Source: a virus | Reading direction: 5' to 3' (one strand) | DNA length: 22,342 nucleotides | IMG/VR virus record: IMGVR_UViG_3300028800_000328 | Span: 1-22,342 of that record | In this document: in pieces, positions 2,163 through 12,595 of the stretch | How positions within the stretch are numbered: the stretch's first letter is position 1 | Layout of the letters: each line of letters opens with the position of its first letter | The notes under the pieces: model-generated | The model's database searches: none | Seen by the model: only the letters and a program-made list of their open reading frames with translations | What the model was told of the DNA's origin: nothing | Position numbers and translations under genes: made by a program

Positions 2163-2633
2163 ATGTTCTCGCTAAAGAAGTGGTTCCGACCTGATCCGGT
2201 TGTGTTCAGCCCTGAGCCGGTCGTTGATCCGATTGAACCAGACAACCCTGAGTTCTTGTTCTTCGTGCCTGCAAGCTGGGAGGAGATCGAGGCAAACACA
2301 ATCCGGCCAGATCGATTGGCACATGCATCTACAGATACCACCTGGCATCCGACATCAGAAGATCTGGTCGAGGGTCGCGAGTTCGAGAAGCAATATGAAC
2401 CTCGCCCATACGAGCGCGTCCTTCCAAAAGGAGCGCTCTACATCCCTCGCAAGCTCACTAAGAATGAGTATGAACTGCACCGCCTCGGTATTCAGTTGAG
2501 ACGGTTGGGTCTAGATGCAAAAGTCCCTAAGGCTGTTCTGACAAAGCTCAAGGACTACGAGAAAGGGCCGCGTCGAGTAACACTAGACGCAAACGGCAAG
2601 AAGAAGGAAGTCAAAGGAACGGCCCTCAGTTGA
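2163..2633 (+). CDS. Hypothetical protein, 156 aa
   Basis: Starts with ATG two bases after the previous stop and is probably translationally coupled to it; no strong Shine-Dalgarno is visible. The N-terminus (MFSLKKWFRPDPVVFSPEP) has a short amphipathic head followed by a Pro/Glu-rich stretch to about residue 50. The middle is polar, and the C-terminal half is helical and basic (KLTKNEYELHRLGIQLRRLG, then a Lys-rich tail). There is no signal peptide, membrane segment or known motif. Base composition is slightly less GC-rich than the capsid gene. Its last codons lie inside the terminator hairpin that follows. Function unknown; the setting suggests a head-proximal or accessory protein. Confidence 0.7.
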   Translation: MFSLKKWFRPDPVVFSPEPVVDPIEPDNPEFLFFVPASWEEIEANTIRPDRLAHASTDTTWHPTSEDLVEGREFEKQYEPRPYERVLPKGALYIPRKLTKNEYELHRLGIQLRRLGLDAKVPKAVLTKLKDYEKGPRRVTLDANGKKKEVKGTALS

Positions 2634-2647
2634 GGGCCGTTTCTCTA
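2618..2647. terminator. Bidirectional terminator between convergent genes
   Basis: AACGGCCCTC (2618-2627) pairs with GAGGGCCGTT (2632-2641), a 10 bp stem with an AGTT loop. It is followed on the plus strand by TCTCTATT and on the minus strand by TTCCTTT. It serves both the plus-strand gene ending at 2633, whose stop codon is in the hairpin, and the minus-strand gene ending at 2645. Confidence 0.88.
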
Positions 2648-3028
2648 TTCCACTCCGCAGTTCCTAGCTGAGTAGTACCACTGATTGCCGCCGAATCTGT
2701 TGCCATTGTTCATCCAGATTAGGTAGCCGATTTGGTACTGCTGCCACGGCGTAGCATCAGCAGGATCTGACGGATAGTTCTTCGTGATGTCAGGGTACTT
2801 CATCAGCATCGTGTTCCAGGTGCCGATGTCAATCTGGAGTCCACCATGGTCAGTGGACGGGGCGCCAGTCCAAGTCGTAGTCTTGTGCCAATCGACCGAC
2901 TCATGTCGATGAATGCAATGTGCTTCGTTCATCCAAGCTCTCGTAGGTTTGAGAGCGTTGCTTGCGTGTGCTGTCCCAGCAAATGTGATGGCTAGGATCA
3001 TCATCGTGATTGTGAGTAGGTGTCTCAT
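2645..3028 (-). CDS. Secreted lysozyme-like / transglycosylase-like enzyme
   Basis: A 127-residue protein read leftward. I chose the start at 3028 because it places a classical signal peptide at the N-terminus (MRHLLTITMMILAITFAG, cleavage after AHA at 20-22); the open frame reaches 3136 but would bury it. The mature part has a single small domain: CIHRHES with candidate catalytic Glu43, GGLQIDIGTW at 62-71 (the GGLQ..TW motif of Rpf and transglycosylase-like domains), and Cys38 and Cys124 likely forming a disulfide. It should cleave peptidoglycan outside the membrane. Orientation opposite to all neighbours and a terminator of its own mark it as an independently transcribed accessory gene (moron). 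A 13 bp dyad (CGAGT-GAA-ACTCG, 3037-3049) lies just upstream of the start. It could be the endolysin, a release helper or a host-altering factor. Confidence 0.8.
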   Translation of the reverse strand: MRHLLTITMMILAITFAGTAHASNALKPTRAWMNEAHCIHRHESVDWHKTTTWTGAPSTDHGGLQIDIGTWNTMLMKYPDITKNYPSDPADATPWQQYQIGYLIWMNNGNRFGGNQWYYSARNCGVE

Positions 3029-3287: not shown

Positions 3288-4184
3288 ATGCCATACGGTT
3301 ACGAACAGCAGCCACGCACGATGATCGGCAACACGGCGCCCTTGACGGCGACGTTGTACGCGCTGGATGACGAGACGCTAGTTCCGCAAGGCAACATCTC
3401 CAGCGTTCACTTCACCGTTGTCACCCCTTCGGATGATCCTAGCACCCCGACAGTCAACAACGTTGCTGGCACTGTTGCCGCCGATGGCGTAGGCCAATAC
3501 GTTGTGCCGACGACCGTCAACACACAGGCTGGCGACTACAAGGCTATCGCCACCTTTGCCTACGACGATCCCGGTGGCCTAACAGGACTTACGAAGTCAA
3601 TCCCCGTGGACTACAAGGTCGATGATCCATTCGTGCGCGCAGGGATTTCACCGGCCTCCGCAGCCGTTAGCCAGGCCTGGATGTTCCTCGAAGACTGCTT
3701 CGACTCTGAGTTCGGTGGCCCTTGGCTCCGAGACATGACCAAGGCTGTCTTCGATGAAACGAAGCTCCGTGGTCTGATCCCTCAGACTCTCCTCACCATC
3801 AACGCACAGATGCCGACCACGAACTACACTGAGGCAAGCTTCCCATATGTTTCGGGCATGACTTCTTCGGGTGCCACTGAAGGAAGTGACGGTCAGGCCC
3901 TCTTCGCATTGGGTCTTCTCTGCCAGGCCGAGCGACAGTTGATGCGAGCCTATGTCGAGCAGCCTGTCCTCAACGGCTCTCCAGTTGCCTACGAAGACCG
4001 CACGCGCTACCAAGCTTCTTGGCAGGCCATGTACGCCATTGACAACAAGGAGTTCATGCACTGGCTCAACCGTTGGAAGCTTACTCAGTACGACCTCTCT
4101 TCCGGCTCGCTACTCATCGCCTCGAAGGCAGGCCGAATGTTGCCTGGCCCGATGCGGTCGCGCAATGTCGGTCGCGGTTTTTGA
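3288..4184 (+). CDS. Putative neck/head-tail connector protein with N-terminal Ig-like domain
   Basis: 298 residues, ATG with Shine-Dalgarno GAAGGA 7 bases upstream. Residues about 10-112 form a beta-rich Ig-like domain (TATLYALDD, VHFTVVTPSDDP, a GQYVVP turn and DYKAIATFAYDD), of the kind seen in many virion proteins. Residues about 120-298 are mainly helical (SQAWMFLEDCFDSEFGGPW, ALGLLCQAERQLMRAYVEQ, RYQASWQAMYAIDNKEFMHWL) and end in a basic tail. It is first in the block between head and sheath genes, which is where adaptor and head-completion proteins usually lie. The assignment rests on position and fold impression, not on a recognised motif. Its final 20 bases overlap the start of the HNH gene. 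Confidence 0.7.
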   Translation: MPYGYEQQPRTMIGNTAPLTATLYALDDETLVPQGNISSVHFTVVTPSDDPSTPTVNNVAGTVAADGVGQYVVPTTVNTQAGDYKAIATFAYDDPGGLTGLTKSIPVDYKVDDPFVRAGISPASAAVSQAWMFLEDCFDSEFGGPWLRDMTKAVFDETKLRGLIPQTLLTINAQMPTTNYTEASFPYVSGMTSSGATEGSDGQALFALGLLCQAERQLMRAYVEQPVLNGSPVAYEDRTRYQASWQAMYAIDNKEFMHWLNRWKLTQYDLSSGSLLIASKAGRMLPGPMRSRNVGRGF

Positions 4185-4647
4185 TAACCGCTACGTGGTT
4201 TCTAATCACGTCGTACACCTAAGAAATGTGGACAAGATCTGTATCGATTGTGATAAGTCTCTAGACATCACTAGCTTCTACAAGCTCCAGGGAAATAAGG
4301 ACGGATACAACGTTCGCTGCAAGGCGTGTTACAAGATTAAGTACCCGTCTCAGACAATCGACAAAGTTCTCCAACGCACATATCAAACTCGCTTGCGCAA
4401 TCGTAAGTATCTTTGGACGTATCTACTCAGTCACCCCTGCGTAGACTGTGGCGAGTCTGACCCCATTGTCCTTGAGTTCGACCACGTAAGAGGCGAGAAG
4501 CATTCGGATGTAGGGAAGATGGCACACAACACGCGCTCGCTCAAATCTATCCAGACAGAGATCGACAAGTGCGATGTTCTTTGTGCAAACTGTCATCGCC
4601 GTCGCACAGCGCGATCTCAACAGTGGGACAAGGCGGTAGCATTCTAA
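4165..4647 (+). CDS. HNH homing endonuclease, free-standing
   Basis: 160 residues from ATG at 4165; GTG at 4195 or 4228 are possible later starts, and no start has a good Shine-Dalgarno. The N-terminal part has a zinc-binding module with Cys26/Cys29 and Cys52/Cys55 (ICIDC, then FYKLQGNKDGYNVRCKAC). The C-terminal part is a complete HNH nuclease: Cys92/Cys95 (PCVDC), the first active-site pair Asp106-His107 (LEFDH), then LCANCHRRRT with Asn142 and His144 and zinc ligands Cys140/Cys143. It would nick or cut a specific phage DNA target and spread its own gene. It is inserted between two neck genes and its codons look more AT-rich than its neighbours, consistent with recent acquisition. All key residues are present, so it is probably active. 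Confidence 0.9.
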   Translation: MSVAVFDNRYVVSNHVVHLRNVDKICIDCDKSLDITSFYKLQGNKDGYNVRCKACYKIKYPSQTIDKVLQRTYQTRLRNRKYLWTYLLSHPCVDCGESDPIVLEFDHVRGEKHSDVGKMAHNTRSLKSIQTEIDKCDVLCANCHRRRTARSQQWDKAVAF

Positions 4648-9211: not shown

Positions 9212-9730
9212 ATGTCTACCCCAACGCCAGAGCTAGATGCAGATCTGCTCTATACCCTCGACAACGACGAGGAGACCGGCGCCTTGCTTGTCAATGCCGT
9301 GGAGGCAGACGAGTTTGACCCCAGGCACTCCAACGACGTTGAAGGCCTCCTCTTCCTCGGGAAGCTGACACACAATGCCGAGATCTTCGGGCATTCATTC
9401 ATCCTCAAGACCTTGACACGGGGCGAGAGACTTGCTACATCGCTAATCGTCAAGGAGTACGAGGGGACTCTCGGTGAAGCCGATGCCCTTCAGACAGCTA
9501 CGGTTGCAGCATCGATCTTGACCGTAGATGGCCGACCGCCAAGCTTCGCACTCACTCCCGAAGAGAACTCTCCCTTGGCTCGCATTCGAGCAAACTTCGC
9601 GGTTGTGACCACCTACTACGATCCGATCATCGAGACCCTGTGGGCCGAATACGGAAACCTCCTGATTCGACAGGTGGCAGCGTTCCAGGCGATGCAGGGA
9701 AAATCGACAGCGAGTCGTCGTACGTTCTAG
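9212..9730 (+). CDS. Tail assembly chaperone, short (zero-frame) product
   Basis: 172 residues from ATG at 9212; no clear Shine-Dalgarno, which fits a protein needed in low amount. The sequence is acidic at the N-terminus (residues 7-40) and then helical (LTRGERLATSLIVKEYEGTL; DALQTATVAASILTVDGRPP), matching the G-type chaperones that bind the tape measure during tail assembly and are absent from the finished virion. It lies between the tube and tape measure genes, exactly where this pair is found. The slippery heptamer near its 3' end produces a longer form. When ribosomes do not slip, translation ends at TAG 9728-9730, nine codons after the site. Confidence 0.88.
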   Translation: MSTPTPELDADLLYTLDNDEETGALLVNAVEADEFDPRHSNDVEGLLFLGKLTHNAEIFGHSFILKTLTRGERLATSLIVKEYEGTLGEADALQTATVAASILTVDGRPPSFALTPEENSPLARIRANFAVVTTYYDPIIETLWAEYGNLLIRQVAAFQAMQGKSTASRRTF

Positions 9731-10080
9731 CCCTTAGTCGGCTCGCTAAAGAACAGGGCCTCCTCGTGGGGGATTTGAACGAGATTCAGACTCTCGCGCT
9801 TTTGGCCGTGCTCAGAGCCGACGAAGACGAGAAGGATGAGAAGGAGTGGAGAGACTTCCGCTCGATGATCTTTGCAATGCACCCGGCCGAAGGAAAGCTC
9901 CTGCTCGACGCCATCGACAAGGCACGCGACGATACGGCCTTGGCGGAGCACAACCTGGCCGAGTTCGCGCCTGCACTCACAGACGAAGAAATGGAAGGGT
10001 ACGTCCCGTTCTCGGATCAGGAAGCCGAAGAAGCCATTGCGCTCCTGAGACGCTTCGGAGTTGCTAGCGTAGGTCAGTAG
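9212..10080 (+). CDS. Tail assembly chaperone, long product via -1 frameshift
   Basis: Joining 9212-9703 to 9703-10080 gives 164 + 125 = 289 residues; reading goes ...QAMQGK|IDSESSYVLALSRL. The second part (9640-10080 is open in that frame, and its Met at 9640 is not a likely start) is helical and acidic (RADEDEKDEKEWRDFRSMIF, ALTDEEMEGYVPF, EAEEAIALLRRFG), like GT/T-type extensions. In phages with lambda-like organisation the ratio of short to long form is fixed by frameshift efficiency and is needed for correct tail length. No independent ribosome binding site precedes the second frame, which supports synthesis only by frameshift. Confidence 0.85.
9697..9747 (+). promoter_or_regulatory. Programmed -1 frameshift site with stimulatory stem
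   Basis: The heptamer GGGAAAA at 9697-9703 is in the correct phase (G GGA AAA) for tandem slippage. Five bases downstream, AGCGAGTCG (9709-9717) can pair with CGGCTCGCT (9739-9747) in a 9 bp stem with one G-T wobble and a 21-base loop. The zero-frame stop codon lies inside the loop. This is the canonical layout of frameshift signals in phage tail chaperone genes. Confidence 0.85.
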
Positions 10081-10113
10081 CCCAACTTTCCGTTCTGACG
10101 CGGGAGACGGGCG

Positions 10114-10142
10114 CTGAGGGCCTTAGAGAGGCCTTCTGAGGG
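10114..10142. terminator. Weak hairpin between convergent genes
   Basis: GGCCT (10119-10123) pairs with AGGCC (10129-10133) around TAGAG, followed by TTCT. It is flanked by a direct repeat of CTGAGGGC (10114 and 10136). It fills the gap where the chaperone gene and the reverse-strand gene converge, but it is short and lacks a good U-tract. That would suit late read-through into the tape measure gene. Confidence 0.4.
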
Positions 10143-10433
10143 CTAGGTGTGGAGCGCTGCGCTCACCAGCACGATCAGGATGAAAAGAGCGATAACGCTC
10201 ATGATCATCGCAGGGTGGTACTTCTTGTAGTAGTCGTGCTCCTTCGGCGGCCGAGGTTCCCACTCTGGATTGAAGAAGAGCTTGTAGCCATCGTGGGTCT
10301 CGGGGGCATGAACAGCGATAACGCGAGGGTGCCCATTGTGGTCGGTCTGTTGCCAATAGCGCTGAGAGTCCCAATGGGTCGCCGGTTTCGCTGTTTTCAT
10401 TGCCTCCTGTCTCTCTGTTGGTGAAAGTTTCAT
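10143..10433 (-). CDS. Small tail-anchored membrane protein (moron-like)
   Basis: 96 residues read leftward from ATG at 10433, with AAAAGGA just upstream; ATG at 10400 after AGGAGG is an alternative, and the open frame reaches a TTG at 10469 that coincides with the probable transcription start. Residues 1-74 are polar, rich in His, Pro, Trp and Tyr (HWDSQRYWQQTDHNGHPRVI; PEWEPRPPKEHDYYKKYH). One hydrophobic helix spans about 75-93 (AMIMSVIALFILIVLVSAAL) and only three residues follow it. The Lys/Tyr-rich side before the helix predicts a cytoplasmic body with a C-terminal anchor. It has its own promoter and lies antisense within the tail operon between chaperones and tape measure. Possible roles are superinfection exclusion, a holin-like or lysis-timing role, or host modification; none is proven. 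Confidence 0.75.
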   Translation of the reverse strand: MKLSPTERQEAMKTAKPATHWDSQRYWQQTDHNGHPRVIAVHAPETHDGYKLFFNPEWEPRPPKEHDYYKKYHPAMIMSVIALFILIVLVSAALHT

Positions 10434-10469
10434 CTCTTCCTTTTCGGTCGGGATCTTGCCTGTAATCAA

Positions 10470-10497
10470 AGGATAGCCCCTTTCGAGCGAAAGTCAA
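10470..10497 (-). promoter_or_regulatory. Sigma70-type promoter with dyad in the spacer
   Basis: On the minus strand TTGACT (10497-10492) and TATCCT (10475-10470) are separated by 16 bases, a good housekeeping promoter for the membrane protein gene starting at 10433. A perfect inverted repeat CTTTCG-AG-CGAAAG (10480-10493) covers most of the spacer and the end of the -35, as a repressor operator would. The -35 lies only 4 bases from the tape measure ATG on the other strand. Confidence 0.7.
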
Positions 10498-10501
10498 GTC
10501 A

Positions 10502-12595
10502 ATGCCTTCAACACCCGGCAGAACGAATCGCATCGAGGTCGATCTCAAACTCCTTCAGGATGGCAACATTCAGAAGCTCAAGGAGTTCGGCGCTCAGTTC
10601 GACAAGTCCGTTCTAGCTCTAACAGACACCCTAAGCACCTACGCTGACCGGCTGGCCGGTATTGTCGGCGTGGAGGGTGGATCTGGTGCAGGAAAGCCGG
10701 GGCCAGATGCTACAGTAGCCAAGCCTTCGGTACTGGCTACTCGCCAAGGTGGCACAGAAGCCCCGACGCTTGTCAATGCCCCTCCAGGATCTCCTCCTCA
10801 GTCACCTGGTGGTGGATCGATTGCCGACCAGGGCGGCGTAGAGAATGGGCCAAATGCGCCTAGGATTGCCACCGGCCCTGGGACTGGACTTCCAGGGATT
10901 GAAGAGCAATACGTTCGAGCACAGCGATACATTGGCTCTGTGCCGGTCGGTCTTCGTCAGACTCTAGGCTACATCGCCGAGGGGCAGTTCTACGGACAGT
11001 CACCTGAAGAAGCCAAGGATGAGTTTGGCAATGTGATCCTTGACGAGCAAGGCAGAACAACCTACAAGAGAGACGAGTTTGGACATCTCCAATACTCCGC
11101 CGCAGGTATCGGCCCATTCAAGCTCAGTCAGCAGACCGCCCAGAGCATCAGCAACAACCTACAGCTTGGACAGTCTATTGGCTCGAATGCCGGGTTGCTC
11201 ATGCAGCACTTCAGCAACATTCGCTCGGGAATCCTCGGCTATACACAGACCGGTATGAACCTCGGCGCTCCTAGAACTGACTCTGGATTCTGGGGTGGCA
11301 TTGAGGGTATGCTCGGTGGCATCGGCGGCCCTGCCTTCCGCATGGCGGCTGGTCAAACCTGGGACGCCCTGAAGAGTTCAATGTTCGGAGTCGATCCGAA
11401 CTTCTCGCCACAGCAAGCGCAGCAGGTCAAGCAAGCAATCCAGGGTTATGGCTACGGATCAGGCGGCACCTACAACTGGCTTTCCGACTCACTCAAGAGC
11501 TTGTGGATCCATCAGAACATCACGCCGGACGCAGCCATGTCCGTGCTCGATCCTTCGATCCGCTTCGGTGGCTCGGAAGACCTTAGCCAGTTGACCGACA
11601 TCCTCCAGGCGATCCCCGGCGCGGCCAAGGCTGCGCGCATGAATCTCCAGGACTTCACGGCTGCGCTCGTGCAGACAGCCCAGTCGGTCTCCCAGACCAC
11701 TGGCATGACGGTCGCCAATGCCGCGTCGGGGATCATGGCCTACTCGACCGTCACAGGCCTCAACCCCGCAGAGGCGCAGACGCTGATGAGCAATCCTCAG
11801 AACTACCTCCTAGCTTCAGGGATGACTGGCCAGTCGATCTGGCAGTTGACGGCAGGGCACAACAACATGGCGCCCCTCATGTCGTTCGGGATGACACAGT
11901 TTGCTCAGTCCGTCGGCAATCTCACTCCTGCCCAGATCGCAGCAGGTCTCAAGGCCCCGAAGAACTCCGCAGCGTATCAGCAGGCGAATCAAGTCATGTC
12001 CCGAGCACAGCTTCTCTATCTCCAGAACCCTCAGATCTTCGGAGGACAGTCTCCGCGTGAAATGCTCAACCAGGGTCTTCGTGCCGGAAGCTGGCAGGGA
12101 GTTCTCAATCGCGTCTCCGTCGTACAGCAGCTAGAAGCCGACAACACCTCGAAGCACATCGACTTTGCCAACTTGATCGGCAAGTATGGCGGCACGGTGA
12201 AGCAGAAGGAGAAGTGGGAGTCAGACATGGAAGCGGCAATGGGTCATGTATCTGCGAAGGGTAAGACGCAGGCCGAGTACCAGCAGGCTCGGACACAAGC
12301 TGCGCGCAAGAAGCTCCTGGCCGACTTCCAGGGCGCGGCGGGTCAGGCTGGCAAGAAGGCTGCGGAGAAGATCACGATTGGTCTGACCGGCGATGGTGCG
12401 CGATGGTTCAAGATCATGGAGGCCGCTTACGGATCGGGCAACAAGTCCGATACAAACCAGTACAAGAAGGCGGCGGCCTATGCTCGACACGCCATGAACA
12501 ATGACGCTCTTGACCGGGCAACGAACTGGACTGAGAACGAAGCAGTAGACATTGGTCGTCGTGGGGTCGATAGCATCGCAAACCTCTTCGGATAA
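10502..12595 (+). CDS. Tail tape measure protein
   Basis: 697 residues from ATG at 10502, without a clear Shine-Dalgarno; the dyad CTTTCGAGCGAAAG ends 8 bases upstream and could mask the start in RNA. The identification rests on position after the chaperone pair and on composition: an N-terminal helix (DGNIQKLKEFGAQFDKSVLA), a Gly/Pro-rich low-complexity stretch at about 56-130, then long Ala/Gln-rich helical regions with a hydrophobic Gly-rich patch (FWGGIEGMLGGIGGPAF) that may be a membrane-active segment. It should sit inside the tube and fix its length; at the usual 1.5 angstrom per residue this predicts a tail of roughly 105 nm. The C-terminus is Lys/Ala-rich and helical. It is short for the class, and no lysozyme or peptidase domain is fused to it. 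Confidence 0.8.
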   Translation: MPSTPGRTNRIEVDLKLLQDGNIQKLKEFGAQFDKSVLALTDTLSTYADRLAGIVGVEGGSGAGKPGPDATVAKPSVLATRQGGTEAPTLVNAPPGSPPQSPGGGSIADQGGVENGPNAPRIATGPGTGLPGIEEQYVRAQRYIGSVPVGLRQTLGYIAEGQFYGQSPEEAKDEFGNVILDEQGRTTYKRDEFGHLQYSAAGIGPFKLSQQTAQSISNNLQLGQSIGSNAGLLMQHFSNIRSGILGYTQTGMNLGAPRTDSGFWGGIEGMLGGIGGPAFRMAAGQTWDALKSSMFGVDPNFSPQQAQQVKQAIQGYGYGSGGTYNWLSDSLKSLWIHQNITPDAAMSVLDPSIRFGGSEDLSQLTDILQAIPGAAKAARMNLQDFTAALVQTAQSVSQTTGMTVANAASGIMAYSTVTGLNPAEAQTLMSNPQNYLLASGMTGQSIWQLTAGHNNMAPLMSFGMTQFAQSVGNLTPAQIAAGLKAPKNSAAYQQANQVMSRAQLLYLQNPQIFGGQSPREMLNQGLRAGSWQGVLNRVSVVQQLEADNTSKHIDFANLIGKYGGTVKQKEKWESDMEAAMGHVSAKGKTQAEYQQARTQAARKKLLADFQGAAGQAGKKAAEKITIGLTGDGARWFKIMEAAYGSGNKSDTNQYKKAAAYARHAMNNDALDRATNWTENEAVDIGRRGVDSIANLFG

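What the first reader, a model, noticed from the sequence alone, without database searches (positions are those of the whole stretch)
10143..10510. Antisense moron with spacer-dyad promoter abutting the tape measure start
A 96-residue tail-anchored membrane protein is encoded against the direction of the tail operon. Its promoter (TTGACT, 16 bases, TATCCT) is close to consensus, contains the perfect dyad CTTTCG-AG-CGAAAG at 10480-10493, and sits 4 bases from the tape measure ATG. The layout predicts expression independent of late genes (for instance early in infection or in a prophage), control by a dimeric regulator, and interference between leftward transcription and tape measure expression. 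It is a good candidate for an exclusion, lysis-timing or host-modifying factor.
Basis: partly seen in the sequence, partly recalled or inferred. Interest (0 to 1): 0.6.

Follow-up and report, generated by a model that had tools for sequence, protein, structure and literature searches.

The report
Backwards membrane gene beside tape measure
In a small group of tailed viruses of actinobacteria, a spot in the tail-building gene row that is tightly closed in their cousins holds a backwards gene for a small membrane protein, a different protein in each virus, most likely made early in infection to change the host membrane, perhaps to shut out competing phages.

Summary
[quoted passage not shown] Its TTGACT-16-TATCCT promoter is the only strict TTGAC/TANNNT match in the window. 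The ORF has the phage's codon signature and weakly matches a phage family of unknown function (phrog_22291).

New here: in 14 sampled loci of more distant relatives the chaperone and tape measure abut or nearly so. In the window's own three-phage clade the gap is 422, 568 and 633 nt. Each gap holds an antisense membrane-protein gene, and the three proteins are not detectably related. In the nearest relative the promoter sits at the same place and shares TTGAC-N3-CGCTCGAAA, which occurs once in its 150-kb genome.

The dyad is not conserved and is ordinary for the window, so a dimeric operator is not supported. No integrase was found, so prophage expression is unlikely.

Best reading: an antisense moron slot carrying interchangeable membrane proteins, made before the late genes. 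Superinfection exclusion at genome entry is the leading function. HK97's exclusion moron gp15 occupies the same slot, on the other strand. Function is inferred, not shown.

The parts
10143..10433 (-). antisense ORF, 96 aa, one C-terminal transmembrane helix (proposed moron)
   Evidence: weak match to phrog_22291 (E 0.001)
10434..10441 (-). Shine-Dalgarno-like AGGAAGAG of the antisense ORF
   Evidence: sequence
10470..10475 (-). -10 element TATCCT
   Evidence: TAGTCT at the matching place in L042
10492..10497 (-). -35 element TTGACT
   Evidence: TTGACA in L042
10481..10497 (-). TTGAC-N3-CGCTCGAAA, shared with the nearest relative, once in the window and once in its 150-kb genome
10480..10493 (.). 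dyad CTTTCG-AG-CGAAAG; right half shared with the relative, left arm not
10081..10501 (.). slot of 421 nt between the chaperone stop and the tape measure start; closed or nearly closed in other Bxz1-like phages
9212..9730 (+). tail assembly chaperone, first frame
   Evidence: phrog_2792, E 1.9e-9
9478..10080 (+). -1 frame open past the chaperone end (frameshift extension, by synteny)
10502..12595 (+). tape measure gene, 697 aa; no clear Shine-Dalgarno before its ATG
   Evidence: synteny with E3, ScoobyDoobyDoo, Skog; N-terminus NRIxxDLKLLQD shared with two relatives

Best explanation
[quoted passage not shown] Host RNA polymerase with its housekeeping sigma factor reads the conserved promoter as soon as DNA enters, before the late genes. 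The protein inserts in the cytoplasmic membrane through its C-terminal helix, with the N-terminal domain in the cytoplasm, and most likely blocks genome entry of related superinfecting phages, in the manner of HK97 gp15. Shown: the gene's position, coding signature, membrane helix, clade-wide slot and promoter conservation in one relative. Inferred: early timing, topology, exclusion, and the tape measure as the thing recognised.
For: Slot: 14 relative loci have a gap of -18 to +62 nt between the chaperone and tape measure frames (Skog's annotated start gives +2); the window and two relatives have 422, 568 and 633 nt. Each of the three gaps holds an antisense ORF with one or two predicted transmembrane segments and the best coding score of six frames (z 3.4, 4.9, 8.0). 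Promoter: the collinear upstream regions of window and L042 align better than nearly all dinucleotide shuffles under three of four scorings (1 to 8 of 2000 reach the score), and no shuffled pair held TTGAC-TANNNT in both regions (0 of 3000). TANNNT is the preferred -10 of mycobacterial SigA (PMC6448022). Precedent: HK97 gp15, annotated as a moron, lies between the chaperone and the tape measure. [quoted passage not shown]
Against: No detectable homology to HK97 gp15 or to any PADLOC defence model. The three slot proteins are unrelated to each other by BLASTP, so they need not share one function. No TTGAC/TANNNT promoter was found in the L063 relative. Over the whole gap the promoter alignment is not significant (215 of 1000 shuffles), and under the fourth scoring of the restricted test 61 to 132 of 2000 reach it. 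Significance therefore depends on restricting the test to the upstream region, which was done after the shared site had been seen.
Confidence: 0.4

Rival explanations
1. An antisense membrane-protein moron as above, but acting on the host or on lysis (holin or antiholin-like, or membrane remodelling) rather than excluding phages.
For: Small proteins with one or two transmembrane segments fit holin-like roles. The same clade has a second antisense gene in the virion operon, encoding an exported transglycosylase-like protein in the relative (PF06737, E 2.3e-9), so cell-envelope cargo is a theme.
Against: A 75-residue N-terminal domain and a C-terminal anchor are not typical of holins. No lysis cassette was identified beside it. 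An early-type promoter suits neither late lysis nor a structural role.
Confidence: 0.25
2. The conserved element mainly makes an antisense transcript or an occluding promoter that tunes tape measure expression; the ORF is secondary.
For: The promoter abuts the tape measure ATG and is better conserved than the protein. The tape measure ATG lacks a clear Shine-Dalgarno in both phages.
Against: Transcription runs away from the tape measure gene, so no antisense RNA to its coding sequence is made. All three ORFs carry coding signatures and membrane segments. The predicted 5' end near 10463 does not overlap the tape measure start.
Confidence: 0.12
3. A sense-strand element (late promoter or mRNA leader) explains the shared bases, and the antisense TTGAC/TANNNT match is coincidental.
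For: The shared bases lie just upstream of the tape measure start in both phages.
Against: By eye, no sense-strand -10 at a suitable distance from the tape measure ATG is seen in either phage. The sense RNA folds no better than shuffles (z -1.05), and no Rfam family matches.
Confidence: 0.08
4. The antisense ORF is a chance open frame in a non-coding insertion.
For: An open frame this long arises in 34 of 500 shuffles of the gap. No close homologue was found in phages or IMG/VR.
Against: Codon-usage z 3.4 with the antisense frame best of six, membrane helix, ribosome site, match to phrog_22291, and the same arrangement in two relatives.
Confidence: 0.05

Closest known systems
HK97 gp15 moron (superinfection exclusion protein)
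   Same: [quoted passage not shown] an extra gene among the tail genes. That morons carry their own promoter is from general knowledge, not tested for gp15 here.
   Different: HK97 gp15 is on the sense strand, with an annotated terminator, in a temperate siphovirus of Escherichia coli; 62 aa; no sequence similarity. Here the gene is antisense, in a contractile-tailed actinophage without an integrase found.
HK97 gp23, annotated as a reverse moron
   Same: Antisense small gene within the tail gene row.
   Different: Different slot (upstream of the J-like gene); homology not tested here.
JBD26 Tab (tail assembly blocker)
   Same: Small moron protein encoded in the late operon, linked to the tape measure by function (PMC10884400).
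   Different: Tab acts on virion assembly of invaders; its gene lies elsewhere in the late operon; sequence not compared here.
phrog_22291 (Gordonia phages Niagara, ASerpRocky)
   Same: THDG-KLF-EW-R-KE-D-K-HP block shared with the N-terminal domain.
   Different: Those proteins are about 80 aa, cysteine-rich and without a membrane helix, in a replication-gene region.

Membership tests
moron (inserted, independently transcribed phage gene) | inserted between two genes that are adjacent in relatives | tested here: met
   gap 422 nt against -18 to +62 nt in 14 relative loci
moron (inserted, independently transcribed phage gene) | own promoter | tested here: met
   sequence level only: single strict match in the window, conserved in one relative; activity not measured
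moron (inserted, independently transcribed phage gene) | own terminator | tested here: inconclusive
   GGCCTCTCTAAGGCC stem after the stop lacks a T run and folds no better than shuffles; terminator-like matches on that strand lie inside the ORF
moron (inserted, independently transcribed phage gene) | base composition different from flanking genes | tested here: not met
   about 55% GC against 58% for the tape measure and sheath genes; a frequent, not an essential, feature
HK97 gp15 superinfection exclusion protein | sequence similarity | tested here: not met
   no BLASTP alignment
HK97 gp15 superinfection exclusion protein | location between chaperone and tape measure | tested here: met
HK97 gp15 superinfection exclusion protein | blocks DNA entry of superinfecting phages | not testable with these tools
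   needs plating and DNA-entry assays
phrog_22291 | match to the family profile over most of its length | tested here: inconclusive
   E 0.001, 47 residues; cysteines absent here
temperate-phage lysogenic conversion gene | phage carries an integrase | tested here: not met
   no PF00589 or PF00239 match in the window or relatives' records; the window and two records may be fragments

The most novel reading that the evidence does not exclude
A clade of lytic actinophages keeps a dedicated antisense cargo slot against the tape measure start. A host-type promoter is retained while the membrane protein behind it is swapped for unrelated ones as the tape measure diverges, making a phage-borne, exchangeable exclusion cassette co-inherited with the protein it recognises.
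Probability: 0.25. Interest if true: 0.7.

Novelty: new variant of a known kind. Interest (0 to 1): 0.5.

Why it matters
Morons beside the tape measure are known from temperate phages, where they act in the prophage. Finding a conserved antisense slot with changing membrane proteins in phages with no integrase found would extend exclusion cassettes to large lytic actinophages. It would also give a short list of small proteins to test for blocking genome entry, and a natural comparison of tape measure and exclusion protein evolving side by side.

Tried and rejected
Dyad as a regulator site: rejected as unsupported. A shared promoter regulon: the motif occurs once per genome. An outside exact match in IMG/VR, L060, lies beside T4-like-looking genes and carries no more similarity than a chance hit would, so it was set aside. 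Protein relatives of P0001 in viral contigs: none direct; a profile with the Gordonia proteins found only their own kind. Host-genome copies of the tape measure: none. Sense-strand RNA structure or Rfam element: none. AlphaFold model too weak outside the helix for a fold search. Whole-gap DNA alignments: not significant.

Full report
What the window is. The genes are those of a contractile-tailed phage related to the Bxz1-like actinophages: major head protein, tail sheath, a structural protein after the sheath that matches phrog_2756 (taken here as the tail tube by synteny), tail assembly chaperone, baseplate J and others. The closest named relatives in the phage collection are Mycobacterium, Gordonia and Rhodococcus phages at 33-38% identity in a large tail protein. 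The record is a 22,342-base virus contig.

The observation. The antisense ORF, its ribosome site, its C-terminal membrane helix and the TTGACT-16-TATCCT promoter are as described. A loose promoter scan finds as many sites as chance gives. A strict actinobacterial form (TTGAC, 17-19 nt, TANNNT) occurs once on both strands of the whole window, and it is this site. The dyad is real, but perfect 6-bp inverted repeats are ordinary in this window (36 against 28.5 expected).

Is it a gene? The antisense frame has the best codon score of the six frames (z 3.4 against shuffles; the length alone is not striking, 34 of 500). GC by codon position follows the phage's other genes. The N-terminal part matches phrog_22291 at E 0.001, and a member of that family, Gordonia phage Niagara gp55, at E 7e-9 in a single pairwise comparison. 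I take this as supportive, not proof.

The slot. A search by the baseplate J alignment found a 150-kb relative (63% identity). A search by the tube alignment found that relative and two records of a third phage (64%), identical over the stretch compared. Between chaperone and tape measure the 150-kb relative has an antisense ORF of 121 aa from its likely ATG, with two membrane segments. The third phage has one of 183 aa with two membrane segments. Both have coding signatures (z 4.9 and 8.0). The three proteins are not detectably related. In 14 sampled loci of more distant relatives the gap between the chaperone frame and the tape measure start is -18 to +62 nt (taking Skog's annotated start); in the three-phage clade it is 422, 568 and 633 nt. 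One phage, E3, appears twice among the 14, and some of the IMG/VR loci are likely copies or close kin of one another, so these are fewer than 14 independent cases.

The promoter. Immediately upstream of the relative's antisense ORF, at the collinear place 21 nt from its tape measure start, stands TTGACA-17-TAGTCT. The two sites share TTGAC-N3-CGCTCGAAA and a downstream CTT-GATTA. TTGAC-N3-CGCTCGAAA occurs once in the relative's 150 kb and once in the window. Restricted to the upstream regions, 1 to 8 of 2000 shuffles reach the alignment score under three scorings and 61 to 132 under a harsher one; 0 of 3000 shuffled pairs hold the promoter pattern in both. Over the whole gap the same alignment is not significant, so the weight rests on its position; the restricted test was made after the site had been seen. 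The dyad's left arm is absent in the relative. The third, GC-rich phage has no such promoter; a CATAAT 7 nt before its likely ATG could give a leaderless transcript, which is only a reading of the sequence.

How it most likely works. SigA of mycobacteria prefers TANNNT as its -10 (PMC6448022), so host polymerase could read this promoter on entry. No tyrosine or serine integrase was found in the window or the relatives' records, so early infection is a likelier time than lysogeny. [quoted passage not shown] I therefore put superinfection exclusion at genome entry first (0.4), a host or lysis role second (0.25). Antisense control of the tape measure is less likely, because transcription runs away from that gene.

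Caveats. Only three phages of the clade were found. No experiment supports expression or function. The tape measure in the window and its nearest relative lacks a clear Shine-Dalgarno, and the clade has lost the overlap with the chaperone seen in most of the relatives sampled; how the tape measure is translated is not explained here.

Noticed in passing
window 2645-3028 (-): A second antisense gene in the virion operon: 127 aa with a signal-like N-terminus. Its counterpart in the 150-kb relative (L042:11118-11537) is a Transglycosylase-like (PF06737) protein, 42% identical over the aligned part; the window protein itself has no Pfam match.
   Followed up: partly
window 2615-2645: A strong hairpin AACGGCCCTCAACTGAGGGCCGTT follows that second antisense gene, a likely terminator.
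   Followed up: no
window 3952-4647 (+): HNH endonuclease-like ORF between structural genes (phrog_2255, E 2.9e-34), a possible homing endonuclease.
   Followed up: no
L060:9622-9649: A T4-like-looking contig carries TTGACTCTCGCTCGAAAAGGATTATACT upstream of small genes; resembles this promoter, judged coincidental.
   Followed up: partly
L003:5935-6165: In Gordonia phage ASerpRocky gene 54 is annotated on the strand opposite to the frame that matches phrog_22291; the annotation is probably on the wrong strand.
   Followed up: partly
window 10502: The tape measure ATG has no clear Shine-Dalgarno in the window or the nearest relative, while most other relatives sampled have the chaperone stop overlapping or abutting it.
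   Followed up: partly
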